From: Norana najaformis
Taxonomy: Eukaryota > Annelida > Clitellata > Crassiclitellata > Hormogastridae
NCBI GenBank assembly: GCA_964023275.1
Contig: OZ029925.1
Location: 6,484,913 to 6,548,912 of the forward strand
Direction of reading: 5' to 3'
DNA: 64,000 bases
Made by a program: the position numbers and the translations under genes. This document shows positions 3,316 through 63,618 of this stretch, in pieces (the stretch's first letter is position 1; each line of letters begins with the position of its first letter). The notes beneath the pieces were generated by a model. That model saw only the letters and a program-made list of their open reading frames with translations, was not told the origin of the DNA and made no database searches.

Positions 3316-3820
3316 CTAATCTAATCTAAAAACTTCTATAGCGCCACTGTAATAATGCTCGAGGCATCAGTCGATGGTCTCTGCTAAACAAAATCACTGT
3401 CCAGGCCAAAGTCCGTGGTGAGTCCGGGTCGAAAAGCCAGAGAAGAGTCCAGAAGTCACAAAGACAGAGCCTACAGAGGAAATGAGTTCAGGAAAAGATA
3501 AGTTTTCAGTCGAGACCTGAAGGCAGAAACAGACTTTGCCGAGCGAACATTTGCCGGAAGAGAGTTCCAGAGTCTTGGGCCAGACACAGAGAAGGCACGC
3601 CTGCCAAAAGCTGTTCTCGTCCACTGAATAGTCAGATTTAAACAGCCAGAAGACCTGGTCGAGCGGAGGTAAGTCTTGGGAGTCAGTACAGAGTGAAGAT
3701 AGTGAGGTTGGTTGAAATGTAGAGTCTTGTATACAATTAGTCCAGTCTTGAACATTATGCACTTTTCTTTGGGCAACCAGTGCAACAATTTCTCGGATTG
3801 GTGATGTGATCATATTTCGG
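3316..3820 (-). mobile_element. 5'-truncated non-LTR retrotransposon, copy 1
   Basis: On the minus strand, an open stretch (3471-3788) begins LHWLPKEKCIMFK and carries [18 protein letters not shown] and [10 protein letters not shown]. These are the usual remnants of the C-terminal end of many CR1/L2-like LINE reverse-transcriptase proteins. The 3' end reads GGCGCTATAGAAGTTTTTAG and then (TTAGA)n, seen here on the plus strand as ctaatctaatctaa at 3316. Over about 330 bp it is nearly identical (by eye roughly nine in ten bases) to 15591-15945, so both are young. The RT core is absent, so this copy cannot be active. Confidence 0.85.
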
Positions 3821-13926: not shown

Positions 13927-16900
13927 TTAACCAAACTGGAAAGTAAATCCTCCTCCTGGAAAACCTTGCTGAGAAAATCCACCAAAGTGCGGACCTCCAC
14001 CACCGAAAAATGTCTGGAAGATCATGTTTGGATCTGAAATGAAAGCAATACCTCAGTGTCAGCCAGCTAAATGTATGTGCAAATGTAATCTCTTCCCATT
14101 TTCCTACTAACTACAGTACACGCTTCCTGTTCTCCCTAAAAATGAACCTCTAATTTTCCTACCAGCTGCTTTCCTATTATCCTACAAAGTGCACTCTTCC
14201 CCTTTTACTTATTAAATAACTTTCCCATTTACCTTTTAGTTCCTTTCCCTTCCTATATCCTTGCAAAGTGGATTATTTTTCAGTTTTTCCTACCAAGTGC
14301 ACTCCTATTCTTCAGAATCCACAGCAATTGCACGGTGGAATGGCAACCTAATTTCATTTTCAAAACTTCACTGACAAGAGATTTCTTTGCACTGAAAACT
14401 AGTTCATCCACTATAAAAGCTTGCACAAATTGCATACATAGTTTTCAAGACTTTTCAAGTCAACCACTACACTGATTTGCATAAATAGTTATGAAGACTT
14501 CTAACAGTGTCATTCTTCTGCTAGTACAGGAAACAGATACATAAATAAAATTTCAGTAAATCTACACGTGGATATGCATACATAGCTACAAAGATGTGTT
14601 GCTCCAACCTGAACAGTCATTCTACTACTAAGTGCAAAATCTTCGGCTAGCACTAGAAAACAATTTCTAAAAAACTCAAATGAACCTGAAGCATTTCTGT
14701 AAATGCAGATGACCTGAGTAATTTACCTGTGAAGCCACCCATTCCTTCGTTTTCTTCAAGGTCTTGTCCACTGTCATACCTCGCCTTTTTCTTTGGGTCA
14801 GACAGAACTGCATATGCTTCACCGATCTCCTTGAACTTCTTCTCTTCCGCTTTCTTCACCTCTTCGGTAGCGTCAGCATGCCGATCTAATATGTAAAACA
14901 CAGGTAAGCACCCTAAAATGACTGCAGATTATCCTGCTTAATTCTATTACTTATTCATTGGGACTCACACATTTTAGTCTGGTAACAATGCTGTCACTAA
15001 ATGACAGTAGGCTGATGATAAACTAGACAAAGACATTCTTTGATTCAGCAGAAATCTTTAGGCTGAAGTTTCGTTTGAGTGATCTGATTCGATTTTAATT
15101 CTGACAGATTTCATTTAACCTGAACTCTCTGTCTCTGTCTCTCTGTCTGTCTCTGCCTTTATCTGCTCTCATTTTCTTTCTCTATCATTTTTTGTCTGTC
15201 CCTCTCTGTCTTGCCTCTTTCTCACTCTGTCTGTCTGTCTGTCTCTCTCTCAGGCAAACCACTCGTATGTGGCAAGTATAGCCATGCCTGCAAAGTGACA
15301 ACATCCAATGACTCATAATATAACAAGCCTCACCATTTTAGGTGAAGTTCACAGCAAAAAAGCATATAACATAGACTTAAAGAAATTTCCAGAGGCAAAC
15401 GCTCACCTGGATGGTGAAGCAAGGCATGCTTTCGGTAGGCTTTTTTCACGGCATCCTCGTTGGCATCTTTGCCGAGGCCAAGAATCTTGTAGTAGTCCTT
15501 CCTTTTGCTCTTCTTCAGTTCCAGCTTAGCCTCCTGAAGCAATTGCCTATTTTCTGCAAACATCAAAAACTGACCACATAATACACTTTTAATCTAATCT
15601 AATCTAAAATCTAATCTAATCTAAAAACTTCTATAGCGCCACTGTAATAATGCTCGAGGCATCAGTCGATGGTCGCTGCTAAACAAAATCACTGTCCAAG
15701 CCAAAGTTCGTGTTGAGTACGGGTCGAAAAGCCAGAGAAGAGTCCAGAAGTCACAGAGACAACCTATGGAGGAAATGAGTTCAGGAAAAGATAAGTTTTC
15801 AGTCGAGATCTGAAGGCAGAAACAGACTTTGCCGAGTGAACATTTGCTGGAAGAGAGTTCCAGAGTCTAGGGCCAGAAACACAGAAGGCACGCCTGCCAA
15901 GAGCTGTTCTCGTCCATGGAATAGTCAGATTTAGACAGCTGGTAATCACGGTAGACATAAGTGGTAGGGAAGAAACATAATACTGTATCGTAGCTGGCAC
16001 ATCCAATAAAAGGTAGTCTGGCCATGCGCTTTCACCTCGGATAGCCTTGGACTTGAACCTCCATTTGGCCTCCTCTGTGCACTCTTCGATATGCCACTGT
16101 GTGCTGTTAACAGCCTGCTTCCTGCTCTGAGATCTCTAGGTTTGGACTAGACTTCTAGCAGATTTTAAATGTGGATCTTATGAACTGTTTATGTCGCTGC
16201 TATACATAATTTCCAAACATCAGTTGCTGGTACTACGCACTTAACCATGATGGTTCTGCCCAATGTCCTAATACTGTGGGCACTCAGCAGAGGCACATGC
16301 TCACTCTCCAAATTACTAGGTGAGTGAGCAACAAACTAAGCACTGTCTGATACAGATTGTGGTTCATTTCGAATCACACAATGATCTAAAATAAAACCAT
16401 GCACTAGTCGTTTATTTAAGCACTTGTTACTATGACAACCTCCCTTCTTCAGTTTTCCCCTGGAGATTAAATAATTCACTGTGTGGCTAAAATCAGACAA
16501 TTTTTTGTGGTCTGCCTTTCTTTAACCAACTTTAACACCTACCAAAACTATCGTAACTGTTCATACCTCGGGTCTTGTCCAACTTGCAGACTTTCTCATA
16601 GTCTCTTACAGCTTCCTCATACTGTTCTAGTTCCATGTAGCTGGAAAAAGGAACAGCAAGTTAGAAAGCTCAAGAAAAAAATACCTACAAATATTTACAA
16701 TGCAGCCAGAAATCATCAAGATCAAACCAAAGTCACTTTCACGAATAACATGATATCTTGCAATAAACCGGAAATGGAACTCCAATAAAAAAGCAGCCAT
16801 TGCTACCCATACTGAATACAATGTTTTAAGAAGGTTGAGTAGCAATGAGGTCAGCAAATTCTAAAGCTGAATTAAATATGCAATCTACACTCCGTCGAGA

Positions 16901-29500: not shown

Positions 29501-32194
29501 AACTCTTGAATCTCTGATTTGTGAAATTTTCTGTTTTATGAAGATCTTTTCTTATTGTTGTCTATTCTTGTGTTTACACTTGAATTCATTTTCATGTTCT
29601 TGGTTTAAAAATTGGACAATCTGTTGTGGTGTTGTATGAAGGCTGCGCAAGCAGGCCTGCATCTTGTAGAACTTGTCATCTTTTGGACGTTGTCATTTTT
29701 TTAGACGTTCCTATGGGTTTGAGTGTTCCCCAAATTTTTTTAAGCTCTAAAATATTTATGCAGGACCGTGACTATGCTCAAGGTGAATTTTTCTCAGTGC
29801 CTTTGAGAGGGTCTTGAAAGGCGCTATATAAATGCTCATATACATACATTTGTTAAGTTGATTAGTTTGGTTTTTGTCAAGTCGGTCGCATTGGTAGCGG
29901 TCGTTTTGCACTGGGACTTCATAAACTGTCTTCCCTTCACAAGGCATTCAGCAGAAAAGGTACCACTGGTATTTATCCCACTCAAGACCTGCATGCTAGT
30001 GGTAGCTGGTGACTGCTAACTAAATATACCAACTTGGTATTTATCCCTCTGAAGAGCTGAACGTTAGCAGCAGCTGGTAAACTTACTGGCAATGCTTGAT
30101 TGTTGATTGTTTGGATGATTCATTTTTTGGATCTGTTTTCCATGATTTGTTGCAAATTACTGCATTTGTTTGGTTTTGTAGATATTTTTTGTGTTTGAAA
30201 GTGATGTAGTGGAGATTTTCATGCATGTTACACAATTTGTGCATGTGTTTTTTTAAAGGAAATTTTTAGTCTGCTTTTGGTGTATGTATAAACTTTTTTA
30301 GTGCATGTAACAACTGTTTCTGAGTTTCAAGCCTGTTTGATTTTATTTGTTTTGCAAATTCTTCGATGCTGCTTTTATTCGTAGGTTTCCTGTGAAGTTA
30401 AGTGCATTAATTGCACAGTTAGTGCTTGTCCTTTTTATGAGTGTGGGGATGGAGTGGAGAAAATAGCACATTGTCAGTATTCGTATCACAACATATGAAG
30501 ATACTCAGAGTTCATATACTCAAGATGCTCATGTCACAAGATACTCAAGATATTCATATCACCTGATACTCAAGATATTCTTATCACAAGATACTCAAGA
30601 CTTTCAGAGTTCATATCACAAGATACAAACTCTTGGCTTGCGTTGTTATCATTGAGCCAATAAATGAAATCAACAGCTCATCAACATTTTGGAGTGTTCC
30701 TAGTTTTCTAAGACCACAAAAAGACGCTGCCATATAGAGACGCTTGAGCTTTTTGTGGATTTGAATAGACGTCTAATTCTCTGTGTTTCTCTTTATTAAG
30801 ATGACAGATTTAAAGCAAATGGCAGAGGAAGATATCATCAGAGGAAGAAAGATGGTCACAAAGATTCAAACACTGCAATAGCGTGCCAAGAAAATGACGA
30901 AACACCTCGTCAGTTAAACAGCGATGCATCTCAGCATTTTAACAATGAAATTGTACGTCATTCTAGGGAGAAGAAACCAGAAAGATTATCGCTGACGGAA
31001 AAATCCTCACCACGAGCAACAGACCTCAAGCAGGGAGACGAGGAAAAGCGTTTCAGGGTGGTGCAAGAGCAGAACGATTCGCTGTTCATAAAAGTTAAAG
31101 CACAGCCTTCAGACTCTTCCAGAGTGCCTTCAAACAAAGCTGTGAATTTTGTGGAGCTCGGCTCCTTAGACAGCATGCCACAAAATCATCCAAAGAATGC
31201 TCATAGGAATTTTCGAGATGGATGTTCCATTAACAAGCTCAGCAATTTCAGTGATAGTTTGCAAGGTTCAGAAAGGAAAGATGTTCCAGATGTAAGAAGA
31301 GGAGAAAGACGGCCAGCAGTATCGGTTCGTACCAGGATTTTTTCCAAGAGTGATGCAAATGTAGAGAAACCGAGTGTCTCTAGAAAAGCCAACAAAGAAT
31401 GGAAAGGAGAGAAGCCGGTTGTTGAACCACAGCAGCATTCTCCAGACGAGAGTTCACAGGGCTCTCCAAAAAAAATGCAGTCTGATTCAAAACCAGAGAG
31501 ACTTGTTGGATCAGGGAGAATTTCTGTTTATGGTAAGAAAAGAAAGAATAAGAATCGAAAGAAGAGAGGCAACGCAGATAACCAAGAACTGCCAAACCAG
31601 ACGACTGATACTGCTTCTGGTTCAGCAATCGTCATGACTCAAAACAGCAGGGCGAAAATGCCTAGAAATGAACAATGTGAGGCAGAAACTCAAAAATCTC
31701 ATGCACAATGCAAAGATGTATCAAATCAGGATGTAACGAAGCCTCCAGTTTCTCGTGATAATGCGCACGCATCTGGTAGCAGTAACAATAACCCTGACGC
31801 CAAAGAAACAGAGGGAAAGAAGAAAAGTTGTGAGCTGGTGATTGAAAAGTGCCTTGATAAAGACTTAGCAAAATCAGATCTGTTGGACACATCCTTTGAT
31901 CTTGATCAAGATCCTCCAGAAGGAGATCAGTTTGATGATGAAGAATGGGAAGACATTGATGAAGAAGTCTGCATTGACTTGATTGCTGGAGGAGAGGACT
32001 CCTATGAAGATAATCCACTCGACATCAGCGATGATACGCTTGACCAGCTCATCAGTGTGCGTATGATACCATCACGAGGTCACAAGGTCGTGGACTGGGC
32101 GGCAGAGATGGAGTCAGTTGAACACAATTCTGTTTCAGAGAAACAGGAAGCTACCAGTCTTACGTCAAATTTACCCGAGAAACAAAGTCCATAA
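26595..32194 (+). CDS. CCDC9: CCDC9 family coiled-coil protein, 8 coding exons, 709 aa
   Basis: Exons: 26595-26693, 26951-27046, 27765-27830, 28156-28212, 28360-28524, 28764-28945, 29313-29383, 30801-32194; 2130 nt, phases agree. Identification rests on family blocks in order: an N-terminal charged coiled coil (MEMMKKKNAELIRRHQLVEE), RRHPRNFGGVDF (human RRHGRNWGGPDF), TGKERRELEEWRREREKIDR, NWRREWDRDKDE, the acidic block DDEEWEDIDEEV near residue 625 and GHKVVDWAAEME near 671. The 465-residue last exon is otherwise low-complexity, rich in Ser, Lys, Gln and Asn. The molecular role is poorly known; the human protein is usually described as RNA-associated, which I treat as background only. The donor at 28525 (CAG/GTTCCT) is weak but the only phase-correct choice I saw. 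A possible 3'-UTR intron runs from 32220 (ctg/gtgaga) to 32456. Confidence 0.88.
27194..27246 (+). other. Candidate alternative terminal exon of CCDC9
   Basis: After a good acceptor (tactttcttgcag) comes gtgatcaacgttgaagtcct, which continues the reading frame from exon 2 (phase 0) for 17 codons and stops at TAA. The stop overlaps an AATAAA hexamer. If used, it would give an 82-residue protein made of little more than the coiled coil. No donor follows, so it is not a cassette exon. Confidence 0.35.
27352..27640 (+). mobile_element. tRNA-derived SINE-A, near full-length, in CCDC9 intron 2
   Basis: The head has a box A-like tggtctatcagtaacg and a box B gggttcaactcc (27405-27417), spaced as in tRNA genes. 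A body of about 220 bp follows (cgtgcctctgtcaccaagcag, tggtaccagcataagg, gaccttgggattcatgc, ctcacttgtggaatatggg). Other copies are at 21600 (no head), 38825 (head only) and 43940 (partial). Confidence 0.85.
29800..29860 (+). repeat. Retroelement 3' end in CCDC9 intron 7
   Basis: gtcttgaaaggcgctatata followed by AATGCTCATATACATAC, of the widespread GCGCTATATAAATG type. Confidence 0.6.
29955..30095. repeat. Diverged two-copy tandem repeat
   Basis: A unit with gtaccactggtatttatccc, an acctgcatgctagtgg-like middle and agctggtgac is repeated with changes (ccaacttggtatttatccct, gaacgttagcagcagctgg), about 60 bp apart, in CCDC9 intron 7. Confidence 0.5.
30490..30630. repeat. Minisatellite in CCDC9 intron 7
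   Basis: About five units of a 29-30 bp motif around atactcaagatattcatatc and acaag, ending 170 bp before the last exon. Confidence 0.85.
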
Positions 32195-39635: not shown

Positions 39636-41144
39636 ATAAGTAAGCTAATGCACTTTTAAATTGGCATTTACACCAACGCTGTGTGGCAACAACATAGTTA
39701 CCAAGAACGATCAGTACTACAGCAGCAGCAACAAAGTGCTGATTAAGTCTTGCTTATACAACTGCAACAATTACTACCATCTTCAGACGATAATTCTACA
39801 CCGAATTTAATTGAATAACACTTTACTGATTCCAAAAGAACAAATACATTGACCATTGTATAGATTGTTGGGATACAAATGGTAGACCCAAAAGGGACAT
39901 AGGCCCTACGGCCCGCTAAATTAGGGCTGCCTATTACAAAACGTGCATGTGGCGACAAAAATGTATAACAAATATTAGGTACAAAAATTAATATTTAACA
40001 AATATTAGCGGTGTCCACGGAACACAATGACAAGAATAAACATCCGAATTTCAGTGAAAAATGTTGATAAAAGTAAGATATCGCCTGTCGCATCAGACTG
40101 ACCATTTGGAAATTAAGAAGCATTCTGATTCGCCACCGGTTGTTCGTTAAACATCGGTGTTCTAGAAGTTACTATTTATTATAAGCTTCGACGGTGTTTG
40201 CCTTTACACAAGCTTACTTATTTCAAGATCACTTTATGATCTTCAGCTTAGCTGCCACGAGGAATGTTACTGATAAGTTGAAGTTTTCTCCGATTTTAGT
40301 GTAATTTAATCAACCGCTGTTGTTAGCAAAGAAACTGAATTGACTTCAAGTAGAATATTTATTTTTGATTAATTGTAAGTATGCTTAAATCTAGTTTGCG
40401 TTAAAAATATATGGTCTAAGGGTGGATATTTTGAGAGCGATAATTGGATAACCGCAGTGCACACGAGAAAATGGTTCTTTTAAAAATTTTACCGCTTTAC
40501 AATTTGTGTCATCTGAACTGGCAAGAGTGCGTAACTTATTGCACTTTGGTTGCAAACATTATAAAGGCAGAGCACGATACTTCTAGTCGGAGTACTTTGG
40601 AATTTTAATAGACATGACGATTTTCACGTTTCATCAATTCCTCAGTTACATTTCATCGAGTTATGTTTTAAAAGTGCCATAAATGCAATTGAACTTAATA
40701 TATTGCAATTAGCATCTTTTGCCGTTATCGTTCATGTATCAGAGACAGTTTGTTGTGTGCAAAGAACCTCAGCCTCTGAATATTGCTTGAGCCAAGTCAA
40801 GAAGAAATGGAAAAGAAACAATAAGGCAGGAGAAAAAAGACACCTACACATTTTGACTGAGGTCAACGGGTGCATTTTAGCACCACCAAGAGGTTCTTGA
40901 AGGGGCTGTACATAAATGCTTTATTTTCCATGATTTGCTCTTTAGGCATTATAAGCATGGCAGGTTGGTTATGGTGCTTCATGAAGGATAAAAGTAAGGA
41001 ATAAAAATTCAGCTGTAAAAATCTTAAGTCTTTGCTAATTGTAAACTGATTGTTTTTGAATTGTTAACTGATAATTTTACTGCAACATCTGCATATTTTC
41101 AGTTTAAATTATTTTATTTGTAGTTATTGTTATTACTGACAACT
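39636..41144. other. REXO4 upstream region
   Basis: No gene recognised. The sequence attttatttgtag just before 41124 looks like a splice acceptor, so REXO4 may have a non-coding first exon further upstream, for instance around 40700-40900 where purine-rich open sequence ends in aagaggttcttgaaggggct (the start of a retroelement-type end). Unproven. Confidence 0.35.
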
Positions 41145-44100
41145 ATGGGACAGAAAAGGAAGGCAACGAACGATGAGGAAGTTCAGCCGTCAAAGAAAGC
41201 AAAAACAGACGATAAAATAGATCAAACATCAAAGCCTCAGAAATCAGAAGTGTTTAAGAAAAAAGTAAGCTCTAATCACAAGACTTTGCCTGCATCGAAA
41301 GTAAAGCCGAATAAGAACAGAAATTCTTCAGGCAAAGCTGCTTTTCGAAAAAGTAATAAAATTGGCCAAACTAAAGATGGACTAAGTTCAAAAGTGACTG
41401 ACAAAGAAACAGTTAATGAAGAAGTAAAGTCATCTTCAGGGAATAAATCGTCAATCCATCTACCTAGAAAACCAGAAGAAGTTTCTTGCAACTGGAAACA
41501 GCTTCTTAAGGTACTGTGTTGCAGCGATGATCTTTGAAAAATCTATTGACTCTAAATTAAAGTATGCATCCAGTTTTCAATCCAGTTAATAATCATCCCA
41601 TCAAGCAGTGTTTAATTGTAGTTTTGGTGTTGTTGATATATACCAGGATCACCAGTTAGCAAAGCATGCACAGCAGAAAGGCAGTACTAATAAGGCTTAT
41701 AAAAGTAGGTCTTGGGCAGCTAATTCATGTAATAGACTAACATAAATTACGGTAACACGACTGTACTCATGTATCATAAACTCTGTGCTTGTTGTACCTT
41801 TGATGTAAGCCATGGTTTCTTTTACAGACCTACTAGTATATGGTACATCACAGATTATTAAAAAAGGACACAAGTCTGTAAATTCCAAAAGAATAGGTTT
41901 GAATCTCAATGTGTTTCATTAAATTTCTTGATTTTCCTGAGGTGATATTGTTGCTGAAAACGTTTAATATACCAAGGTGCATTCCAAGTAAAAGGCATAT
42001 GTTTTAAGTTTAAATCAGTGAGACATTCAGCCATTCAGTTTATACATGTACAATGCTTGCTGCACACATTGACTCATTATGTTATTGGATAGTGTTTTTA
42101 TTTGAAATAATAAATTGTTGAATGTAATGTTGTATTTATGTGGTGACAGTCAGGTAAAGTAGTACATAACAACAAAAAGACGTCACAGAAAAAAGAACAA
42201 TCAGAGAAATCTAATGACTCTAAAAAGTAAGCAGTCCAGTTTTCAATCCAATTAGTAATTGTTCCATCAAGTAGTGTTTAACTGTAGCTTTGGTGTTGTT
42301 GATATGTACTTGAATTGCGTGGCAGAATAAAGGCTTACAGGCACGAAAGGGGTATGAAAGGTTTAAAGATTGGCTTCTGGCAGGAGACTGGTTCAAGGAG
42401 GGCTTTTCTATACTTATTAGTTCACATTTGGGTCAGACAGTGTCTGCCGCATGTAATAAATACTCTGTTACAGTACCTAATAATTGTATGTCTTTTGGAA
42501 TGTACTGGAAACGATGATTTATTTAGTGCCCCTTTTGTACATCTATTCTTAAGTTCATATGTACTGATATGTAATGTCTAACTTATGATTCCCTTGAAGG
42601 TGTCTATTCAGAAGCGCTTTTGGCAGATAAATTAATTATTTTTTTGAAGTGCATACCAGTGGTCTGTGATGTCACATCAAATGGTAGCTTTGCTTTCAAA
42701 AATGGCTTTCTTCTAAGTGTTTATCAATATTTTCTGCTTTCAGATCTAATGAGATCTGGTTTGATGGCGTAGATGAGATACTGCTTGAGACTGGTAGAAT
42801 GCAGGAACCAGCATCGAGCAAAAAACCTGAAGCCAATAACTTGGTAAAACAAAATGCCTTTGAAGGGTATGTGTCTCTTTTGTATCCAGATGCTTAATAT
42901 AGCAACTTTTAAGTACCTCACAGAGTCACTGCCTACACCAGTCTAAGTGATATTAAAGTTCATTAAGAACAGAAAATTTATCTTTAAGCAAATTATACTC
43001 AGATAACTGGAAATCACCACTGACGGGCTCACACACACACGTCGAGCTCAGCCAAAGGTCAACTTGTCCATAGTTGAAAGTTGACAAATGTTCAGAAATG
43101 TAGCCTGCATCTTCTGTTCAGAATCATGTTATGCAGTGCCTCCTAAGGAGACACTCCTCAGACCTGACGTCGCAGAACCACGATCGCACATAATGGTTTA
43201 CAACTGTTTACGAATAGAGGCAAAGAAAGGTAAAGAAGATTGGTGCAGGTTGTTTGGCAACTCATCACAGAATTTTGAGCCAACTGTGGCAGAACTTCTG
43301 TTACCTTGGTTTTATTATGTCAAAGTTAGTAATAACTGACTGACTAACTTACTGCGATCTTTTACTGTTTGTTAATTTTATGCTTAATTATTATTTCTGT
43401 TGACTATGATGATTTTGACCAAGATGACGTGTCGTTGAGGTATTGAATAAGACAGTGATGGTGAATAGTCATAAATTTGTTTTGTGAGATTATTTGCTAC
43501 AAAACATTTATTAGGAAATATATTTTGTTGTCAAATAGTTATGAATTATTAAGGATATAAAGAACTCTTTTCATTAGTGGGTAGTTAATATTTTAATTTT
43601 TTAAAAGCTTCATAATGTATTCTTTTGTTGTTTAAGCAGTGATAATTACTGGTTCTGTGCAGTTTGACCAAAGTGATAGCCATGGACTGTGAGATGGTTG
43701 GTGTTGGTCTTGAAGGCAAGGAAAACGTGCTGGCTAGAGTTTCCATAGTCAACCATTTTGGCCAGTGCCTCTATGATAAGTACGTAAAGCCAATGGAGAA
43801 GGTCACTGACTACCGCACGTTTGTCAGTGGGATTCGACCATCAGATTTAAAAAATGGTAAGACTTTTCAAAATTTCATCATTACTTCAAATAGTTCAAGA
43901 AGTAATAGAAAATATCTGGCTATTGATGGGGACATTTGACCAGAGGGCTAAATGGATGCTGTATATCACCTTGGTTAAGGTAACTCTGTTGCTGCTTAGC
44001 ACAATTCAGGACCAGCGTGAGCTGGGAAGTAAATGGAAAGTCCTGTGATGCTCAGCTCTGCTGTCAAGGATAGAATTTGCTCTTTGCTGATTTGAGGTTT

Positions 44101-51958: not shown

Positions 51959-54900
51959 GAGCTGCCTGGGACTTCGGGAAGTTCAAGCAACTACAGCGAG
52001 CCCTTCCAGAGAATGTTCACGCCGATGGCCGGGTCAGCTGGACATGGAGAGGGACATCACATCATTCCTCCCTACAGAATGGCTCCTTTCCCGTAAGTAA
52101 TAGGCTTCTGTCTTCTGAAATGTAGCACCAGGACCTAAGGCTTCATCAGTCTGGTGCAGCTTGTAACCCTAGTTCTGATTATACCCACTGAAATTCATTT
52201 TGCTGATGCATTTTGGTTGTCAGGTACTTTGTTGATCACCAAGAAATTTAACATACATTATACAAAAGTTACGTTGATATTTGTTAAGGGTAACCCACAT
52301 GGAACAATAGTGTTTTGCTAGCATGGGTGTCCGAATTTTATAACAAATTATGGCCAGCAATTTTGCTCTTGCCCTTACAATACATGATGAAATCTAATCT
52401 GTTAGTAAACTAAGAACTTCTATAGCACCATTATCATAATGCACAAGGTATCAATGGTTGCTTCATGTCAAACTGTAGTTCTAAGTCATAATGCCTTGGA
52501 GAAGTACAGTCAAGATCCATTGTCAGGCAAACCAGAAGCTATGCTATGATGGGTAGGCAAGCTGTAACAGCTGAGTAACACAATGCCATTGTAGCCAGTT
52601 TTCTGTGCTTTTCCGTAGACTCACCTCTTCTGGGTTTCCTGTGAGCGCTCCTGTCTTACCACCATCAAGCACTGCGAGGCATCTTCTCCCGCCTTCGATA
52701 CCACAGCAACAGCAGCAGCAACAGCAGTCAGCTCACTGGGTCCTTGGCCCCAACAGTGATGTAAGTTGAGAATATCAGTGTTAATGTTTTTTTGTGTTGT
52801 TTACCTGTAAGTTTTGAGGAAAATGGCAAGTGCCTGGAGGCAGTTTTTCATTGGTTGTCTGGAATTGTCATTTGGTAACTTAGTTGGTGTTTGTTTTAAA
52901 GTTTCAACTTCTGTTATCTAATAAACCAAGTGCAAAGGGTGATAAGAGAACAGCAATTAAACTAAAACTGCTGAGGTCGTAGTATTTTGTCGTTGCTTAA
53001 TATGTTACATATATTTGATAACTTTTCTGTTTTGTTTCAAAGTATTAGCTATTTGTTGTTGACCAGGAGTAAATCTTTTATCCATTTTTAGCCTATTTAT
53101 TGGACTTGTAAGTAATATTTTTAATATTTTGCAACTTCTGTGTTCAACTGTTAACTTATTTATAATTTATATTTCAAAATAATTCCAGGCCAAGGCACTA
53201 AACAGCCAATGTTGCACTGATGTGCTGTAAAACCCAATCAGTGTCTGAGAATTTATATAGCACCTTTGAGGGATCTTCTAAGCTGATCTTTTATACATGT
53301 AAAATAATTGCAGTGTATTAGTAAACTCCGTATTGCCAGTGTTGTTAGTTCCATATAATCTTTGGTCCGATTCTGATGAGAATTCAGCAGATTTACAAAT
53401 CTTTTTTAATGTTTAGAACTGAAGTATGGATGTAACATAATATAATGTATTGAAGAATTTATGTAGAGGCTGAAAGCATAAATATAATGCATAGAGTTTA
53501 GATTAAATTTAATGCAGAGTGTTTAGATGATGATTTTTGGTTGTACAGGCCCCAATGCAACAGCTGCAGCAGCAACAGCAAAACAATGCACAGTTCCAGC
53601 GCCTGAAGGTTGAAGATGCTCTCAGCTACCTGGACAAGGTGAAGGCCCAGTTCGGTGGGCAGCCCCAGGTGTACAACGACTTCCTTGACATCATGAAGGA
53701 ATTCAAGTCTCAGGCGTAAGTTGTCAATGTCCCGTTATTTTTGCTGTCTGTAACTCTGTAACAAACTGCAGTTAATTAAATTTAACTTAATGTAATTAAA
53801 TTTAACTTAATACTATACTGTAACTTATGCATCAAATGGCTATGATGAATAAGCAAAAGGATTAGAGGTACCTCATGAGTTTTTGCACTTTCAGGACATG
53901 CTGTTAGATACACCAGTGACCCCTCCCCTTGAAGTTAAGAAATGACGAAGAGAGTTTTGTCTTCTGTTACAGCATTGACACACCTGTTGTGATCAGTCGT
54001 GTGTCGAACCTGTTTGCTGGACAGAAAGAGCTGATTGTTGGCTTTAACACGTTTCTGCCTCCTGGTTTCAAGATCATCGAGGAGGGCAGTGGCCAGACGC
54101 TGGGCTTGTGCCAACCAGGGCAACAGGTGGTGCCCATTGCCAGTCTCGGATCACATCCAAACAATCCACCATTTCGGAGCAGCGTGAGTTGACCTGTTCA
54201 CAGTCTTATTTACAAGATTAGTCACGTTTTAGTCGTCTGTTGGGACTAGTGAAGAAGACCTGTGGCTTGGAGCAAAAGGTTTGGAGAAAATATATTTCAA
54301 AGGGAGAACCAGTGGGTAGAAGTTTCTTCAAATAACTAAGGTCTGAAAACCATATCTTTGTAATTGTTACCTTAATGAACTATTCTATCACATTATGCTA
54401 CTTGTATCTAGGAGCAACCTCCGGTTCGACCGATTCCACCTGTCGTTGCACCGGTCTCTCAGCATCAGAGTCATCTCAATTCACAATTGCAGCCTCCTCC
54501 TGGTCAACCAGTCGAGTTCAACCACGCCATCAATTATGTGAACAAGATTAAAGTAAGTTCCTGAAAGCTCCTGAAAGTTCTTGGAAGCTCCTGAGGTTCT
54601 GGGAAGCTCCTGAAGTTCTGGGACGCTCCTAAGGTTATGGGAAGCTCCTGAAGTTCTGGGAGGCTCCTGAGGTTATGGGAAGCGCCTCGAAGTTCTTGGA
54701 AGTTCCTGTAGATTCTTGGAAGCTCCTGAAGGTTGTGGGAACTTCCTGAGTTAATCTAGTCAAAACAACTGTTGTGTGGAAATGTTGATTGATGTTTTAG
54801 ATGCAAAAACAACTTAAGTCCAGCCCTTCGTGTGCAGGTATTAAAATGAGTCATTGCCAATTAATTTTGGTGATTACTTGTGTACCGGTATATAGTATCT

Positions 54901-56949
54901 TGTGTACCACTATATATGTAGGGATGTATGCATGATTATGTATTTATGTATGTATAAAGACACTTAATATAGCACCTTTTAAATACCTATCCAAAGCAAT
55001 GCTGTGCAAAGTTTGCAGATTATTTTGAATTTGTAAACAATCTGTTAAGTAGCTGTGAAGACCAAAAATTACTGTGTATGAGTCAGTTTGGGAGAGAAAA
55101 AAGTGATGATGAGAAAAAAGTTAATTCAGTTATTTAGAGGGGTCAGAAAAATAGGAGGAAACAGAGAACAACTAAAAAATTTAAATTGATCCACATGAAT
55201 GTCCCACTAAATTGCATTCCTTATTCATTTATTAATTAATAGTAATTGTTAATTATAGTAGTAGTAATTATTTAATTGTAAATAAATAGGATTTCACTTA
55301 ATGTAATTATTTAAAGGTCTTGTAAATAATAGTTTTGATGCGCTTAGCTTGACGATTCGACTTTCTGATTTGTTAGATGTATTACAATGGCCGACCTGAA
55401 GTGTACAAAGCATTTCTCGACATCCTACATAACTACCAAAGAGAACAGAAAAACATAAAAGATGTAATATGTAATTTTATGTGTAACATATTTCTAACAT
55501 ATATTATATCTAAATAAATTCATTATTGCAAAAATATACAAATAGATTTTACATGGTGACAAGATATGTGATGACCTATATCACATTTTCAACATTTATG
55601 CTTGTATATGTACATGTGTGTGTGTATATATATATGTATATATGTACATGTGTGTGTATATATATATGTGTATATGTACATGTGTGTATATATATATGTA
55701 TATATGTACATGTGTGTGTGTATATATATATGTATATATATGTACATGTGTGTATATATATGTATATATGTACATGTGTGTGTATATATATGTATATATG
55801 TACATGTGTGTGTGCATATATATATGTATATGTGACTGAAAAAATTTATTTATAATAAATCTGTTTAAATATTTTTGCAACAATGAATGTTCGAATCTGC
55901 AGCAGTCTGATGAATTAATTAATTATTAATTAATTATAATTAATGAAATTTCGAACAAAGATTCAGTTGACGTCTGATCCGAACAGCATTTAACCAGATT
56001 TCTGTCATTTTTGTTTATGATAAAAATGCTTTCCTCTAACAAGTTTTCTATTATGTGATTGTGATAGCAGTGCAGCAAAGTTCAGAGTTCAAAGTCGACT
56101 GTGACGGAGGCTGATGTGTATGCTCAGGTGGCCAGTTTGTTTCAAGATAATCCCGAGCTGTTATCGGAATTTCGGCAGTTCCTGCCAGATGCCAATGGCA
56201 ATGCGGGGTTGATAAATGGAGTGAGTACATCCTTAGTGACATGTCTTTGTTGTATGGGGATTTTAGTAAGTTAATACTGCATACGCTAAATAAATAATAA
56301 GTAAGTTAATAATTGACGCAAGATAGTGTAACTTAAGCTTAACTTAGTTTAAATTAAGCTAACTGGTTAGTTAGTTATCTAGACACTTAGTATAGCACCT
56401 TTTAATTACCTCACAATAGCGCTGCCTACTCTGTCTAGTGTTTGTAGATGTTTTTGAACAAAGAGTTAATCAGTAAGCAAACAGGGCACAGATAACGAGA
56501 AGAGTCACCACCAGCAGGCTCTTGCATGCACATACAGCCCAGCTTAGATTACCATCCAGAATTCACAGATGATGCAGAAGATACAAAGCTTAATTTGTTA
56601 CTGAATGCAGTTGTACCATGAAATCTGTTCTGCTTTAGCTTGGAGCAGCAGAGTCAGCTTTTGGAGGAGGGTTTGGACAGGCTGCAACTGGAGTCGGAAT
56701 GGAAGCAGTTGGGAGGCCAGCAGACCATTCGGTCACCAAGAGTTTTAATCCAATCCATCGAAGCCAGTCAACTGGGTCGAGTCATGCCATGGCACCAGCA
56801 AAGGTCAGTTGCTTGCATCAGGAACATGAGACATTTGTAATCTGGCGGTAAAGTGATATGTAGCGCTTCTGAAATGGTCAGCTTCAAGAACGTGATGCAT
56901 GTGGAATCTGTCCATAATATATATATACACACATGTATATACATGTGTG

Positions 56950-56992
<43 letters not shown>

Positions 56993-59900
56993 AAGAGATC
57001 GGCTGTGTGCCTTGAGAACACGAGTTGTGGTTGGTCTTTATGCAAAATATTTGTAGCATTGTTGAAAAGGTCAGATGTATGCTCTGAAAACATGAGATGC
57101 ATAATCTGTCTGCAAAACTGTCCTGGTTGTGCTTGTGAAATTATTAAGTCCACAGTGCATCATTTTTTAGATGTTGGATGGGGGCGTCAACCTGCAAATG
57201 CATCAGTCTGCACAAACCACGGTGAACTTCTTGTCCTGTTCTTACCCTCATAAGCAGTGCTTTCCATCATGCCTTCTCAGTGGTTGTACCGTCTGCCTAG
57301 AATGGCCTTCCTCTAGATCTATGTCTGCTTGTGGATGGGGTGCTTTGTGAACCGTTTTTCGGTGGTTTAGAACCAGGGCACGGGCTATGAATAGATATTT
57401 TTAAGAGCTGCTAAACTTTGATGAATGAATGAATGAAGGAGTGGGTGGGTGAGTAAGTGAATGATTGAATAAATTTTTACTTAATGTTGTTTTATTAAAG
57501 ATGGTGAATTATTTTTGCAGAAAAGGAGGCTGTCCAAGGAGCCAGTTTTGACACCAGTTAAAGCTGAAGTACCCTTATCTAACAAGGAATACTTTGACCA
57601 GGTAGGTTGGCTGGTTTTTAGCTAAAATTGCAAGGAAACCGTTGATTTGCAGAATCTAGATTAATTTCTTCTTAGAATGAATCCAGCAAGGACTCCATTA
57701 ATGCGAAAGTAAAGCAAAGCTGAACCTATATGGCTGACTTTTATGTCATTCATATCTTGACTCTGTTCTGGAGTGACATCATAGACTATTTTCGAGTGAG
57801 TGGGTGAGGGTTCTCAAAACCTAATCTAAAGTAGAGACTTCTAGCGCTACGTATTGTGACAGACGAAGTATCAGTCATGGGTTGTGCGAAGTGTTGCCGT
57901 TCACAAGAGGCTTTGCCATTAATGTTTCGGCCAGTGAAAACATTAGTGTGATATGTAATGACGTTGTAGTTGAAGAGGTCCATGTCTCGCGATGATCTGT
58001 ACAAGGAAATGTTCGACTGTATCAGTCTTTACAACAGAGGAAGCATCTCTGCTGAAGACCTTCTGGTTATGGCCGGCCCTCTGATAAGGTGAGAATGATG
58101 GGGTTTTATAAGTCAATTCTAAAATGCAAACATAAACATGGCCTGGGTAGAGAATCTTACTCACTTACCAACCTTCCTTTCTTCCTTCATTCCTTCCTTC
58201 CCATTTATCTACATAAGAGTACTAAATGGTGCTATATTAAGTGTTATGATACATGCATTAATGCATACATAAGGCCCATTCAATCAACACTATGCCATAT
58301 TTACTGTAATGAAGCAGAGTGGTTGGATTACAGTGTTATATATGTATTGTAATTTGAAATTGTAATTTAAAATTTATAAAGCGCCTCTTAGAGGATAAAC
58401 TCAACAGGAGCGCTCCCAAACCCAAACAAGTTAAACAGTACAGTCTTCAGGTGCTTGTGGAACCCTAAGAGGGGGAGGGAGAGGAGCTCAAGTCACATTT
58501 CAAGATTGAGATTATTGTTGATGATTCAATAAACAATAACCGTAAAATTTTTAAAAACTGATATTGTGAAAAGCAGAATAGATCTGAAAGTAAAACAGTG
58601 CTTTATTGATAAAAACACCCTTTTACCCTTTGCAATTTTTTATGATTTATGAGTAATCTATCTGGTCTTGTTTACAGTAAAGCTCCAGAGTTGAAGTCTC
58701 GGCTGAGCAGCTTAGTTGAATCAGACCGAAGAGCAGCCTGTGAGAAGAAAGACAAGGACTTGCAGTGGCATCTTGGTAAGCTATTATTCAAGAACTCTGC
58801 TACCTCGTCAGTGCTTCCTTTATATAACAGGGGTTGGGCTGGAAGCACCTCTGGGTATAAAACTTGTAGGGGATAAAAACAGACACATTGCTTACTTACT
58901 TATATACATGCTCTAAATGAATGAGTGATGGTTGCTTCATGTGAAAGCCATAGTAGAACTTCACGATCCATTGGAGAAGGCTCATAGGCTATCATACGTG
59001 GTCAGCCAGCTATGACGGATATATCTGTCAAGAGCTGGCTGACCACAAATGATACCCTATTTGAACAGAGTATCTTATTTGTATTGGATTTGACTGGGCT
59101 TCTTCAATGGATTTTGAAGTTTGACTGTGGTTTTCACTTTTCTAACCTGTCCAGAGGTGGTTACTGCATAGGGACCTAGCTGATGCTTGTCATTAGGTAT
59201 TGGTACTGTACGAATGCCAGAAATAAACGAATAAGTACAATGTTTGTTTGTGAGTCTTACACTTTAACTCCTTCAAAAACCAAAAGGTCAATTCTTGAGG
59301 AGCTATGGGGGAAATGTGTTCGGGCGGAGGTGGCTTTTACATCTTGGTCTAATCGCTGAAACTGACTTTGCAGACTGATACCATTTTATAGCACTTTATA
59401 AAGAGGAAAATGTTGAAAGCTTTGTGCTTCTGTGTTGTGTTGAAAGACCTATCGAGCTGCAAGCGCTACGACGACCAGCCAAGTTATCGCGTTCTGCCAA
59501 AGAAGAAGAGCCTGTCAAAGTCTGATCACAGAACAGCGATTGGCACAAAGGTGAGGTTGTTGCATTTCTTCGCAAAATAATAAAATGTGAATTGCTGCTG
59601 AAGGGAAGATAAGATATGAACTGAACCAATTGGTCCTTCTTGGTAATTTCCAACATCTGTTAACTCTGGACTTACCACTGAAAGGCCAACATTTGACCTC
59701 AAAACCTGTGGCCAGTCACTGCTGTAAATGCAGTTTCTTCCACTTTCTACACTTCCAGGAAAATTTTACCTACACTGGATCTTCCTTATCATGCAGTTCT
59801 TATGGGATAATACTAAGTTTGAATGCAGTAGCTGATTATAACTTGGAGAGTGCAGGTTTGAGTCTCCACTGTGACAGGTACTGTTTAAGGGACTTTAAGA

Positions 59901-62900
59901 AAATCCTTCAGACAAAATTGCACAGTGCCACCGATTGATGCTGTATGATTAAATGGTGGCGCTCTGTAAATAGAGAAATAATAATAAGTTTTGTGAGCAA
60001 CATAAGTAATGCATTTTAACAAAATTGCATTATAATGGGGTTCATATTCCCGACCTCAGTATGTCAGAATTCTTGTTAAAATGATCTGTGTGTTGGGAAG
60101 GGTCCTCTGTATTTGATTTTCTTGATATCAGTTCAGACGGTTTTCACAGCTGATTTGAAATTAATTGTTGTGTTAGGACGGTGGAGATGTACCCGATGTA
60201 CTGAATGAGGAGTATGCTGTGTTTGCTGATCCCGACGCTAAAAGAGAGTCGATAATTTGGCACTGTGGCAAGCTGTCTGCCTACGACGAAACTATTCTTC
60301 AGATTGAAGAAGAACGCTATGAGGTAAAGAGCTATCAGTCCAAATGTCTCGCAGGTAACCAGTCTAAGCAAACTGTTCAGTCTTAATCGAGTGATGATTG
60401 ATTGATAATAATAATAGAAATAATAATAATTACAATTGTTAGGGTGCACTTAAAGGCATTCCTTCATTGACTGATTGATTGATGATTGATTTATGGACAG
60501 ATGGATTGATGGACTGATTGATTGATGGACTGATTGTTTGATTGATTTCAGCTTGATATGGTCATGCAGCCACACTTGGATTTGATGAATGGCCTGACTG
60601 AAGTGTATCAGGCAATGCAGAAGACGGCCCCCGAAGAACAGGTCAAGTTTGTCATCAACGACCTCTCGGCTTACTGCAACATGTCAGAAGTTCACATTCA
60701 AAGAGTCCTGAAAAAGTACGTCGTGCGCCGATTCATCTACCATTTAAAAAGTTACTCAATCTCATTGTTCATTTATTCATAGCTCAGTTTCTAGGTGATT
60801 GGTATACTGTGGAAGCCATTCAAGAAATGCCATATGTGTGCATGTATGTATGCAAGCATGGCATTTATGTAGCACCTTTTGCAAAGCTCACTGAGGCACT
60901 GCATATGTGGCTATCATCCTGATCCGAACTGGTACGACATAAGCTAAACAGAGAATGTATTTTGAGCTGAGTCACACAAAACAGCACATATATTTAGTAG
61001 AAGATTGTTCTAAGAGGAACGTCCAATGCTTGAGAACCCCAAAACCTGTTGCAATTTCCCGCTTGCGCTTTGCGATAATGGCACAGTAGTAGTTTCCAGA
61101 TTAGAATTCAGTTTGAAAGAAGTTTTCAGTGTCTTGTAAATTGTCTCTTTGTGGTTCAGATTGTATAATAACCGATGGGATACTCTATACGAAGGGCTGA
61201 AAAAGATCCCGTCTGTTGCTATCCCGGTTGCACTGAACAGACTGCAAGAAAAGTGCGCGGAGTGGGACGAGAGCAAGAAGAAGTTCAACCAGTCTTGGCA
61301 GGAATCGCTTTTGAAGCAGCGCATTCGCTCTTTCGAGCAGCAGGGGTCCAAGTTTAAGAACACGGACAGCAAGCAGCTGAAACCGAAAACCCTTGTCAAG
61401 GAAATTGAAGACCTTGCCAAAGCGGTGAGAAGCGCACGGAGGGTGCTATTGCCTTCTCTTTCTTTGTGTCTGTCTGTGTGTCTATCTGTCCGTCCATCTG
61501 TCTGTTTTCCTGCCTGTCAGTCTGTTGGTAGCCAGGTGTCTTATTTAAACATGGTTAAACTTTAAGCCATTGTCTCATTTGGAAATTTTTTAAATAGTAA
61601 TTATTCAGATTCATGGTTTTTGACAGACGATTGCTGGTAAGTGAAGACGAAGGAGGTAGCAATGAGGAACAAAAACAGTTGATTGACATGGTGGCCTATT
61701 GATTAAGTTGCCTTACAGCTGATCTAGTGGTTATGGTTTAAATTCCCCACTGCCACCAATTTGTTTTGAACTGATAAGATTCATGTCTTATGAATTGGTA
61801 GGACTTTCTATTCATGTCTTCTTGGTCGGTTGAAAGTACTTAATGTGTCTTTTCCTGCCGTGTTCTCTTTGTCTTATTTTGTTCTTCTGTGTCGTGCCCT
61901 ATATACTTCTATGTTATCCTGTCCTCTTCTCTTCTGAGTTCTGTGCTCTCCTATCTTGTCATAATACACCAGAAACTTGTTATGACACTGTCTTTGGAAA
62001 TCATTTCAAAGAGCACCTTATGTATTAGGAGGAGGTCCTTCTCTAAAGCTGAACTGTATTTGTCATCCATCTCCTTGATCGCGTTCTTTCGGAAGTCCTC
62101 TTTTAAGAAAGCACGTTATAAAACGGATCCAGTGTATCAGTGACAAGATTTACGTAGATAAGATTTGAATATCGGTTTAAGTTGAAATGCTTCTGGAATT
62201 GTTTCAGAGGGAGTCACTTGCGAATGAGCCTCACATGACGCTTCCGTTCCAGGACCCAACAGTCTTCTACGATGCCGTTAAACTGGTCAATCTCGTCTCC
62301 AAGCGCCAAACAGGGGTCACCGAAGAAGAGTTATGGCGATTCAAGTGGACCTTGCAATCCATCTTGGAAAACATATTCCACATTCCTTACATCAAGCAAG
62401 AATTGGATTCGGACGAAGGTGGTACAGCTGAAGTTGGTCATATTTGGACAGTTAGCCTTTGGTGCATACCCTTTTAGTGGCTTTGTCATAAAGCAGTGGC
62501 TGTTCTAAAGTGGCTAATGTTGTTAAGAAGCAGTAGGTGATGTTTTCAAGATGCAGTGGCTAATGTTGCAAAATCACGGGCAGATATTGTTGAAAAACGT
62601 GTCTGATGTGAATAGCAGTAGCTGATATTCTAAAAAGCTGTGACTTAGTGGCTAATACTGTTGAAAGGCAGTGGCTATAGCAAAAGCACTGGGGTTCTGT
62701 TGTGTGAAACATTAAGAAAACATAATAAACAAAATTTTAAAGTTAAAACTTTGGTGCCTAAGTTGATCAAAATGGTTTTTAGAGTCCGTTGACAACCATA
62801 TTTGAAAATGCATTTCGTTTCAGGATCTGGTTCTGAAGTACATGATGAACCTGTTAGCAAAAGCAAACACACTTCAAAGTCAACGCGACAGACATCTGCT

Positions 62901-63618
62901 GGCCATGAATCGGCCTTGAGTCAGCAACAGAATTCATCACTCTCACAGGTAGGGCTTGCTTCTGCATGCGGATGGCACTGTTTCTATGAATAATTCTGTA
63001 GTCATTGCCGGATTTTTACAGTTTTGGTGTCAGTGGCATCTCTTGCAGCCTGAATGCGACAAGGCTTAGGGACTTTGAAGATGGAGTCAGCTGTCAATGC
63101 TGGATGGGAATCCGTTGGTTGGCCTCAGCATGTCTGCCAGCGGTAACTTTTCTAGTTATCTGAGCACTGTGTGCGTACTGATGAACCGTTCTTAGGCAGC
63201 AAGGTACTTAAAAGGTGCTATATGAAGTGCCTAGATAACTTAGTATCTTGAAATTTGTTAATTTGTTGTTTAATCAACAGAAAAAGATTTTTTGGATTGC
63301 TTTTGTCATGTTTTTGCTTCAACGAAAGATCCATTAATACATGGATAACGCCTCCTAGCTGTTTTTGAATATATTGGTGAATAATAAATGACATTACTTA
63401 TGTTAGTTTACTGATGTATGTCTTTTTGTAGGATGACACGGTGACTGTGTTTTACTGCAGCGATAGCTGGTATGCGCTGCTTCGCGTTTTCATGGTCCTC
63501 TGTGACCGACTGGCTTTCTTTGTTAAGCACACGGAAGATCTGGTGGATGACGAAAGGAGAGAGTTCAGTCAGGTCTGGCCAGCATCCATTTCCACGGCTC
63601 TTGAGCAGCACATGCAAG
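51959..63618 (+). CDS. SIN3: SIN3 corepressor scaffold, partial: 18 exons, 900 aa, open at both ends
   Basis: SIN3 bridges sequence-specific repressors to HDAC1/2 in the nucleus. Exons: 51959-52092, 52619-52760, 53549-53715, 53973-54183, 54412-54552, 55377-55463, 56068-56220, 56639-56803, 57521-57601, 57970-58088, 58678-58775, 59447-59550, 60177-60323, 60552-60715, 61160-61424, 62208-62418, 62824-62948, 63432-63618; phases agree throughout. Counting from 51959: Gln-rich leader; PAH1 (107-180: [39 protein letters not shown]) and PAH2 (251-340: [27 protein letters not shown]) are near-canonical. PAH3 (about 420-490) and the HDAC-interaction region (from about 500: [31 protein letters not shown]) are strongly diverged. 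SIN3A C-terminal equivalents follow ([29 protein letters not shown]). About 300 or more C-terminal residues lie beyond the window. It could be a lineage-specific paralogue. Confidence 0.93.
52395..52475 (-). mobile_element. LINE 3' end fragment in SIN3 intron 1
   Basis: aacttctatagcaccattat and cataatgcacaaggtatcaa match the minus-strand tail of the LINE copies at 3316 and 15591, including upstream (aatct). Confidence 0.65.
54553..54760. repeat. Minisatellite starting at the PAH2 exon donor
   Basis: About ten units of 19-22 bp around ggaagctcctgaagttctg, beginning within the donor context itself (gtaagttcctgaaagctcct). It fills the first 200 bp of the intron. Confidence 0.92.
54955..55015 (-). 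repeat. Retroelement 3' end in SIN3 intron 5
   Basis: gacacttaatatagcacctt followed by TTAAATACC, the reverse of the AAGGTGCTATATTAAGTGTC end seen at 1796, 23338 and 63205. Confidence 0.65.
55600..55840. repeat. TA/TG/TACATG minisatellite
   Basis: Eight or so units of about 28 bp, built on tatatgtatatatgtacatg and tgtgtg. Open in several frames on both strands purely as repeat. SIN3 intron 6. Confidence 0.95.
56384..56540 (-). mobile_element. Retroelement fragment in SIN3 intron 7
   Basis: Reverse-oriented copy of the family also present at 42895-43080, with the same 3' end (tatagcaccttttaattacc). Confidence 0.65.
56915..56992. repeat. (TA)n tract
   Basis: atatatatacacacatgtat and then an uninterrupted (AT)n run. 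SIN3 intron 8. Confidence 0.95.
57815..57885 (-). mobile_element. LINE 3' end fragment in SIN3 intron 9
   Basis: aacctaatctaaagtagaga and cttctagcgctacgtattgt resemble the minus-strand LINE tail at 3316 and 15591. Confidence 0.5.
58920..59145. repeat. Inverted pair of a dispersed repeat
   Basis: tggtcagccagct (about 58999) faces agctggctgacca (about 59033) across a 20-base spacer. The outer parts also pair loosely for about 100 bp (left: tgaaagccatagtagaactt and gatccattggagaag; right, reversed: tgaaaaccacagtcaaactt and aatccattgaagaag). Two copies inserted head to head, or a foldback element. SIN3 intron 11. Confidence 0.8.
59815..59985 (+). mobile_element. tRNA-derived SINE-B copy
   Basis: gcagtagctgattataactt, box B-like ggtttgagtctcc, gtactgtttaagggacttta and an end ggcgctctgtaaatagag with (AAT)n. 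SIN3 intron 12. Confidence 0.75.
60455..60551. repeat. (TGAT)n tract abutting a SIN3 splice acceptor
   Basis: Imperfect gattgatggactgattgatt repeats run directly into the ttgattgatttcag acceptor of the exon at 60552, so the repeat supplies the branch-point and pyrimidine region. Confidence 0.85.
61455..61530. repeat. TCTG-rich tract just after a SIN3 exon
   Basis: (TCTG)n-like pyrimidine sequence about 30 bp downstream of the donor at 61425. The open frame runs through it only by chance. Confidence 0.8.
62465..62690. repeat. Degenerate minisatellite in SIN3 intron 16
   Basis: Seven or so diverged units of 25-32 bp around agcagtggctaatgttgtt and aaaa, starting soon after the exon ending at 62418. 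Confidence 0.8.
63195..63245 (+). repeat. Retroelement 3' end in SIN3 intron 17
   Basis: aaggtacttaaaaggtgcta then TATGAAGTGCCTAGATAAC, same family as 1796. Confidence 0.65.

What the first reader, a model, noticed from the sequence alone, without database searches (positions are those of the whole stretch)
57521..63618. SIN3 with conserved PAH1/PAH2 but a radically diverged PAH3 and HDAC-interaction region
Seen: PAH1 and PAH2 are almost residue-for-residue SIN3A-like. From the exon at 57521 on, only scattered anchors remain. In the HDAC-interaction region SYRVLP and the downstream ERYELD anchor align with the canonical SYRALP and ERFELD, but the canonical LCKEVLNDTWVSFPSWSED block becomes [18 protein letters not shown], and the CED before ER becomes IEE. 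Most invertebrates are thought to carry one SIN3, so either this lineage's SIN3 has shifted how it holds HDAC and its partners, or this is an extra, neofunctionalised copy that keeps repressor docking but has altered enzyme recruitment.
Basis: partly seen in the sequence, partly recalled or inferred. Interest (0 to 1): 0.75.

Follow-up and report, generated by a model that had tools for sequence, protein, structure and literature searches.

The report
Second, diverged SIN3 co-repressor gene copy
An invertebrate genome holds two SIN3 gene-silencing scaffold genes, and the one here has kept the part that docks onto repressors while the part that holds and gates the histone deacetylase has changed a lot; a real but modest variation on a well-known protein.

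Summary
A 16-exon model (53549-63618, introns GT-AG, frame open) encodes a SIN3 protein that continues past the window. PAH1/PAH2 are conserved; PAH3 and the HDAC-interaction domain (HID) are diverged. The window's own assembly (608 Mb, 17 contigs) has a second SIN3 gene on contig C4 with matching intron phases. Pfam PAH scores are close (127.2 here, 123.5 in C4), but the HID model scores 47.9 here and 106.1 in C4. So this is the more diverged of two paralogues, though C4 is not pristine either. 'Radically' is too strong: the HID is collinear, no alternative canonical exon was found, and human SIN3B's HDAC contacts Y401, L424, N425 and an all-acidic triad are kept. 'IEE for CED' is conservative; yeast Sin3 has it. 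Among the named contacts, the gate loop that enters the HDAC tunnel is what changed. PAH3 and the first HID helical block also drifted. Best reading: a working second SIN3 scaffold with altered gating and partner choice. Expression, HDAC binding and phylum-wide distribution could not be tested; a genome-wide HID search for a third copy did not complete.

The parts
53549..54183 (+). PAH1, two exons (53549-53715, 53973-54183), phase-2 intron
   Evidence: 47/72 identical to human SIN3B; 41/43 human-yeast-pombe invariants kept
54412..56220 (+). PAH2, three exons (54412-54552, 55377-55463, 56071-56220)
   Evidence: 111 bits and 54/86 identical to human SIN3A PAH2 (2l9s); 24/27 invariants kept
56639..56803 (+). 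low-complexity linker exon between PAH2 and PAH3
   Evidence: GT-AG, phase 0, open frame
57521..58775 (+). PAH3, three exons (57521-57601, 57970-58088, 58678-58775), diverged but collinear
   Evidence: 15/54 identical to human SIN3B over the compared stretch; 4/8 invariants kept
59447..59550 (+). HID exon with SCKR and SYRVLP (middle domain beta strands; Tyr401 equivalent kept; three of four CSGR residues changed)
60177..60323 (+). HID exon with the rewritten gate loop (VLNEEY...[11 protein letters not shown]...YDE) and acidic stalk (EEER); its start gives 7 residues (DGGDVPD) before VLN that the C4 exon lacks
   Evidence: 28 residues from VLN to the Y448 equivalent against 25 in human; triad E,E,E
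60552..61424 (+). HID helical part, two exons (60552-60715, 61160-61424)
   Evidence: 15/51 and 33/87 identical to human SIN3B; 2/11 and 21/30 invariants kept
62208..62948 (+). start of C-terminal region, two exons (62208-62418, 62824-62948)
   Evidence: 13/53 identical to human SIN3B in the first block
63432..63618 (+). first exon of the Sin3a_C domain; the gene continues beyond the window (three more exons at C13 offsets 64242-66271 modelled in frame; a probable last exon near 67369-67608 read but not joined)
   Evidence: Sin3a_C 123.2 bits over profile positions 1-200 of 281, cut-off 26.8

Best explanation
The window carries a second SIN3 gene, undamaged in the 19 exons modelled and probably working. 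It arose by DNA-level duplication of an intron-bearing SIN3 gene. Its PAH1 and PAH2 stay under strong constraint, so it most likely still docks onto the usual repressors. Its PAH3, gate loop and HID helices have drifted fast. It most likely still holds a class I HDAC through the conserved middle-domain anchors and acidic stalk, but with a rewritten gate loop at the mouth of the catalytic tunnel and an altered PAH3, so that substrate choice and accessory subunits differ from those of the C4 copy. Shown: gene anatomy, second copy, unequal domain divergence, retained contact residues. Inferred: expression, HDAC binding, altered gating and partners.
For: Sixteen exons, introns GT-AG, open frame; three further exons in frame, Sin3a_C 123.2 bits. 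Second gene on C4 with the same phase at the 12 junctions joined there. Pfam PAH 127.2 vs 123.5 bits, HID 47.9 vs 106.1, window vs C4. Invariants kept in PAH3/HID/first C-terminal block: 48/90 here, 63/90 in C4 (nominal Fisher p=0.03); PAH1/2 65/70 in both. Unlinked branch lengths for PAH1/2 and PAH3/HID fit better than proportional ones (2dlnL=29.5, 6 df, p=5e-5); window branch 0.23 in PAH1/2, 1.12 in PAH3/HID. Human SIN3B contacts: Y401, L424, N425 kept; triad E456/D457/E461 = E/E/E; loop 3 residues longer; at most one of E436/D437 remains acidic (contacts from PMC10156912, sections 8-11 read). Third-position GC is 0.58 in the PAH3/HID exons and 0.56 in PAH1/2 exons, while overall GC of the introns between the PAH3/HID exons is 0.38, which fits continuing coding use.
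Against: No transcript, protein or population data. The C4 copy is also accelerated in PAH3/HID (63/90 vs 65/70 invariants, p=3e-4), so part of the divergence belongs to the lineage. The rate test shows that relative branch lengths differ between domains, not that the window branch alone does so. With two copies 37% identical dN/dS was not attempted. C. elegans SIN-3 has an HID only 38-41% identical to its homologues (PMC9217932, passages read), so 35-38% identity alone does not imply a new function. The gate-loop alignment is ambiguous: positions 436/437/440 read R,E,W (phmmer), E,S,W (no gap from Y448) or R,E,I (MAFFT). The C4 gene's sites were picked with homology in view, so its phases are not a blind test.
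Confidence: 0.6

Rival explanations
1. Relaxed, nearly redundant paralogue: after duplication the window copy lost constraint on its HDAC half without gaining a new role; it keeps docking and weak HDAC recruitment and backs up the C4 copy.
For: Divergence is spread over PAH3, HID and C-terminal block, not confined to one surface: invariants kept 4/8, 16/32, 2/11, 21/30, 5/9. Three of four residues of the CSGR motif are changed, and W428 is Y, as it is in C4.
Against: No stop, frameshift or broken splice site in 19 modelled exons. PAH1/2 as well kept as in C4 (65/70 each). Named HDAC-docking contacts kept.
Confidence: 0.2
2. HDAC-poor decoy: it binds repressors through PAH1/2 but recruits little HDAC, acting like the short mouse SIN3B isoform that lacks the HID.
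For: Weak HID score (47.9 bits); precedent of an HID-less isoform reported not to bind HDACs (PMC4914931, passages read).
Against: HID is still above Pfam's cut-off of 25 and collinear; Y401, L424, N425 and an acidic triad are kept; Sin3a_C matched over 200 of 281 profile positions.
Confidence: 0.12
3. Lineage-wide drift: SIN3 evolves fast in this whole animal group, and both copies only reflect that; the duplication is incidental.
For: C4 copy also long-branched in PAH3/HID (0.68 vs human 0.24); the branch joining both copies to the rest is 0.31 in PAH3/HID and 0.03 in PAH1/2. C4 has Q at E461 and keeps only 4/11 invariants in the first HID helical block.
Against: Window copy is further out than C4 in the same genome (1.12 vs 0.68; 48 vs 63 of 90 invariants).
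Confidence: 0.08

Closest known systems
Human SIN3B / SIN3A (SIN3-HDAC scaffold; PDB 8bpa, 2rmr, 2l9s)
   Same: PAH1, PAH2, PAH3, HID and Sin3a_C in the same order; one collinear alignment of 328 bits with SIN3B
   Different: Gate loop longer and without SWSED; PAH3 15/54 identical; CSGR and CKE around the kept RTAI replaced
The C4 SIN3 copy of the same genome
   Same: Same phases at the 12 joined junctions; PAH1/2 equally conserved
   Different: C4 keeps [14 protein letters not shown]...PSWSEDS and RCEDDRF, HID 106.1 bits, but has Q at E461
Schizosaccharomyces pombe Pst1/Pst2/Pst3
   Same: Precedent for SIN3 paralogues working in different HDAC complexes (PMC10115800, abstract and section 10 read; PMC5902990, passages read)
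   Different: Fungal; Pst1, the one aligned here, keeps the ASEDSGF gate
Caenorhabditis elegans SIN-3
   Same: A SIN3 with an HID only 38-41% identical to its homologues (PMC9217932, passages read)
   Different: Single gene with one PAH domain (PMC5902990, passages read), not a paralogue beside a more canonical copy

Membership tests
SIN3 co-repressor family | Paired amphipathic helix repeats (PF02671) | tested here: met
   127.2 bits, cut-off 21.3
SIN3 co-repressor family | HDAC-interaction / Sin3_corepress domain (PF08295) | tested here: met
   47.9 bits, cut-off 25; C4 copy 106.1
SIN3 co-repressor family | Sin3a_C domain (PF16879) | tested here: met
   123.2 bits, cut-off 26.8, profile positions 1-200 of 281, using three exons beyond the window; 19.5 bits, under the cut-off, with window exons alone
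SIN3 co-repressor family | HDAC-contact residues of middle domain and stalk (SIN3B Y401, L424, N425, E456, D457, E461) | tested here: met
   five identical, D457 to E; contacts from PMC10156912
SIN3 co-repressor family | Gate loop E436/D437 and F440 | tested here: inconclusive
   three registers give R,E,W or E,S,W or R,E,I; one acid at most
SIN3 co-repressor family | Binds class I HDAC and represses transcription | not testable with these tools
   needs protein biochemistry
Orthologue of vertebrate SIN3B (as opposed to a separate duplication) | Groups with human SIN3B against the other copy | tested here: inconclusive
   window+human AU p=0.013 on all columns, but 0.056 on PAH3/HID and 0.205 on PAH1/2; window+C4 vs C4+human not resolved; only one human paralogue in the tree

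The most novel reading that the evidence does not exclude
A SIN3 paralogue that keeps repressor docking and HDAC anchoring but has swapped the gate loop that presents acetyl-lysine to the HDAC tunnel, so one genome encodes two SIN3 complexes aimed by the same repressors at different acetylated substrates; its sister copy has the reciprocal defect (gate E436/D437 kept, triad E461 lost).
Probability: 0.2. Interest if true: 0.65.

Novelty: new variant of a known kind. Interest (0 to 1): 0.42.

Why it matters
A review whose passages were read (PMC5902990) describes single SIN3 genes in Drosophila and C. elegans and places the SIN3A/SIN3B duplication in the vertebrate lineage. An invertebrate with two SIN3 genes, undamaged in the parts modelled, that differ in the HDAC gate region would be a natural experiment on how the scaffold chooses deacetylation targets; the one structural study read here tested the gate with a point-mutated human SIN3B. 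The titles and abstract openings listed by five searches showed no paper on such an invertebrate paralogue: 20 of 101 listed; 15 of 16; 15 of 178; 1 of 1; 12 of 257. A sixth was loose: 15 of 16,651 listed, none of them holding the SIN3 phrase. Only open-licence papers were searched, so this is weak evidence of absence.

Tried and rejected
Alternative canonical HID exons: tblastn of the C4 and human proteins over 83 kb of C13 (E up to 5) found none; the same kind of search did find the canonical block in C4 (E=2e-10), so one should have shown. Pseudogene: rejected for the modelled part, since frame and splice sites are intact in 19 exons. A further exon (66674 onward) was drafted with a non-GT right end and dropped; the probable last exon was read but not joined; N-terminal exons were not placed. 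In the C4 model one donor is GC, the first PAH3 exon was not found, and its C-terminal exons were read but not joined. Relatives elsewhere: genome contigs and viral-contig scans gave 99 and 91 pattern matches, none confirmed; these hold prokaryotes and viruses, so this says nothing about other animals. dN/dS was not attempted because the two copies are only 37% identical. A genome-wide HID search (PF08295) for a third SIN3 was asked 30 times and never answered, so 'two copies' rests on the PAH search alone (five matches, two in each SIN3 gene and one in an intronless PAH-only frame). Species is unknown; a mollusc was guessed from recall and is not used as evidence.
Full report
What is there. 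The gene lies on the + strand, after a REXO4-like gene (name from recall). Sixteen exons from 53549 to 63618 join with GT-AG introns into an open frame of 807 residues (that call ended the last exon one base early, mended). Using DNA beyond the window, three further GT-AG exons extend the frame to C13 offset 66271, and a probable last exon resembling the SIN3 C-terminus (by recall) was read near 67369-67608 but not joined. Pfam finds PAH (127.2 bits), Sin3_corepress/HID (47.9, cut-off 25) and, with the outer exons, Sin3a_C (123.2 bits, profile 1-200 of 281). The best PDB match is human SIN3B, 328 bits, one stretch. N-terminal exons upstream of 53549 were not placed.

Is the divergence real? 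Of residues identical in human SIN3B, budding yeast Sin3 and fission yeast Pst1, the window protein keeps 65 of 70 in PAH1/2 but 48 of 90 in PAH3, HID and the first C-terminal block (Fisher p=2e-8). By block: PAH1 41/43, PAH2 24/27, PAH3 4/8, middle domain-gate-stalk 16/32, HID helices 2/11 and 21/30, C-terminal block 5/9. Plain identity to human SIN3B is not higher than that of yeast Sin3 in six of seven blocks (PAH1 65 vs 67%, PAH2 51 vs 59, PAH3 28 vs 31, middle domain-gate-stalk 38 vs 47, helices 29 vs 33 and 38 vs 50; the C-terminal block is 25 vs 24). In PAH1/2 part of this is human SIN3B's own long branch (0.43), so the invariant counts are the better measure there.

A second copy. The PAH search of the window's own assembly (608 Mb, 17 contigs; 21 of 21 first-look candidates scored) gave five matches over the cut-off: two in this gene, two on contig C4 minus strand, one on C1. 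The C4 stretch holds a SIN3 gene whose 12 joined junctions have the same phases as here. Its splice sites were chosen with homology in view, one donor is GC, and its first PAH3 exon was not found, so this is not a blind test. The C4 copy keeps the canonical block [26 protein letters not shown] and RCEDDRF. Its PAH score is 123.5 bits and its HID score 106.1. It keeps 65/70 and 63/90 invariants (window vs C4 in the latter, nominal p=0.03). It is not pristine: its own contrast between PAH1/2 and the rest is significant (p=3e-4), it keeps 4/11 invariants in the first HID helical block, and it has Q at the E461 position.

Rates. On a fixed tree with window and C4 as sisters, PAH1/2 branches are 0.23 (window), 0.30 (C4), 0.43 (human); PAH3/HID branches are 1.12, 0.68, 0.24 (142 and 264 gap-free columns). 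Unlinked branch lengths beat proportional ones (2dlnL=29.5, 6 df, p=5e-5); this test is for the tree as a whole, not the window branch alone. The topology is not resolved: on all columns window+C4 is best (AU 0.86), C4+human is not excluded (0.16) and window+human is (0.013). PAH1/2 alone prefer C4+human weakly and exclude nothing.

What changed structurally. Human SIN3B contacts HDAC2 through Y401, L424 and N425 in the middle domain, a gate loop (E436, D437, F440) that enters the catalytic tunnel, and an acidic triad (E456, D457, E461) on the HDAC basic patch; E436A/D437A loses nucleosome H3K27 deacetylation but keeps activity on a small substrate (PMC10156912, sections 8-11 read). Numbering was checked on the copied sequence. 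In the window protein Y401, L424 and N425 are identical and the triad reads E/E/E. The gate region is three residues longer; positions 436/437/440 read R,E,W by phmmer, E,S,W counted back from Y448 without a gap, and R,E,I by MAFFT. So docking residues are kept and the gate is rewritten, with one acid at most. In C4 the gate ED is kept by alignment, F440 is replaced in the alignments seen, and E461 is Q. Reciprocal loss is suggestive but rests on few residues. The gate is not the only change: PAH3 and the first helical block keep 4/8 and 2/11 invariants.

Mechanism. Most likely: repressors bind PAH1/2 as usual; HDAC is held by the kept anchors; the altered gate and PAH3 change substrate presentation and accessory partners (PAH3 binds PHF12 SID2 in SIN3B; PMC10156912, section 13 read). 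Binding and activity are inferred, not shown.

Known context. Review passages give one SIN3 gene in Drosophila and in C. elegans, three in fission yeast and a vertebrate-lineage duplication (PMC5902990). C. elegans SIN-3 shows that an HID at 38-41% identity can belong to a SIN3 (PMC9217932, passages). An HID-less mouse SIN3B isoform is a precedent for a decoy (PMC4914931, passages). The window gene meets each sequence feature tested for SIN3 membership except an intact gate loop, which is inconclusive.

Limits. Species unknown; no animal relatives could be searched (searches covered prokaryote and viral collections); a genome-wide HID search did not complete, so a third SIN3 without detectable PAH exons is not excluded.

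Noticed in passing
L005 (C1:38256600-38259728), match 1501-1629: Intronless open frame of 397 residues with one PAH match over the Pfam cut-off (36.5 bits for the 362 residues from its Met) and, by eye, a second PAH-like stretch; no HID found by Pfam. A PAH-only protein, possibly a decoy.
   Followed up: partly
C4 SIN3 gene, C4:21896626-21896796 and about 260-430 bases further along the gene: The charged linker exon before PAH3 seems to be followed by a diverged second copy (NLSKNRTPNQTKQNFKK / NLSETKAPNQMKQKFKK), a possible tandem exon duplication.
   Followed up: no
window 41124-43939, + strand: REXO4-like gene just upstream ([12 protein letters not shown]..., [27 protein letters not shown]); name from recall.
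   Followed up: no
window 14653-15593, - strand: DnaJ-type frames ([33 protein letters not shown]), probably DNAJC7-like; name from recall.
   Followed up: no
window 30800-32194, + strand: Single 464-residue open frame, rich in charged residues, not identified.
   Followed up: no
window 3471-3809 and 15764-16135, - strand; C13 offset 70632-71669, + strand: Retroelement-like remains ([10 protein letters not shown]...[10 protein letters not shown] fragments) and a reverse-transcriptase-like frame downstream of the SIN3 gene; names from recall.
   Followed up: no
window 54565-54749: Intron of the SIN3 gene holds a tandem repeat of 19 bases, about 9.5 copies (AAGCTCCTGAAGTTCTGGG).
   Followed up: no
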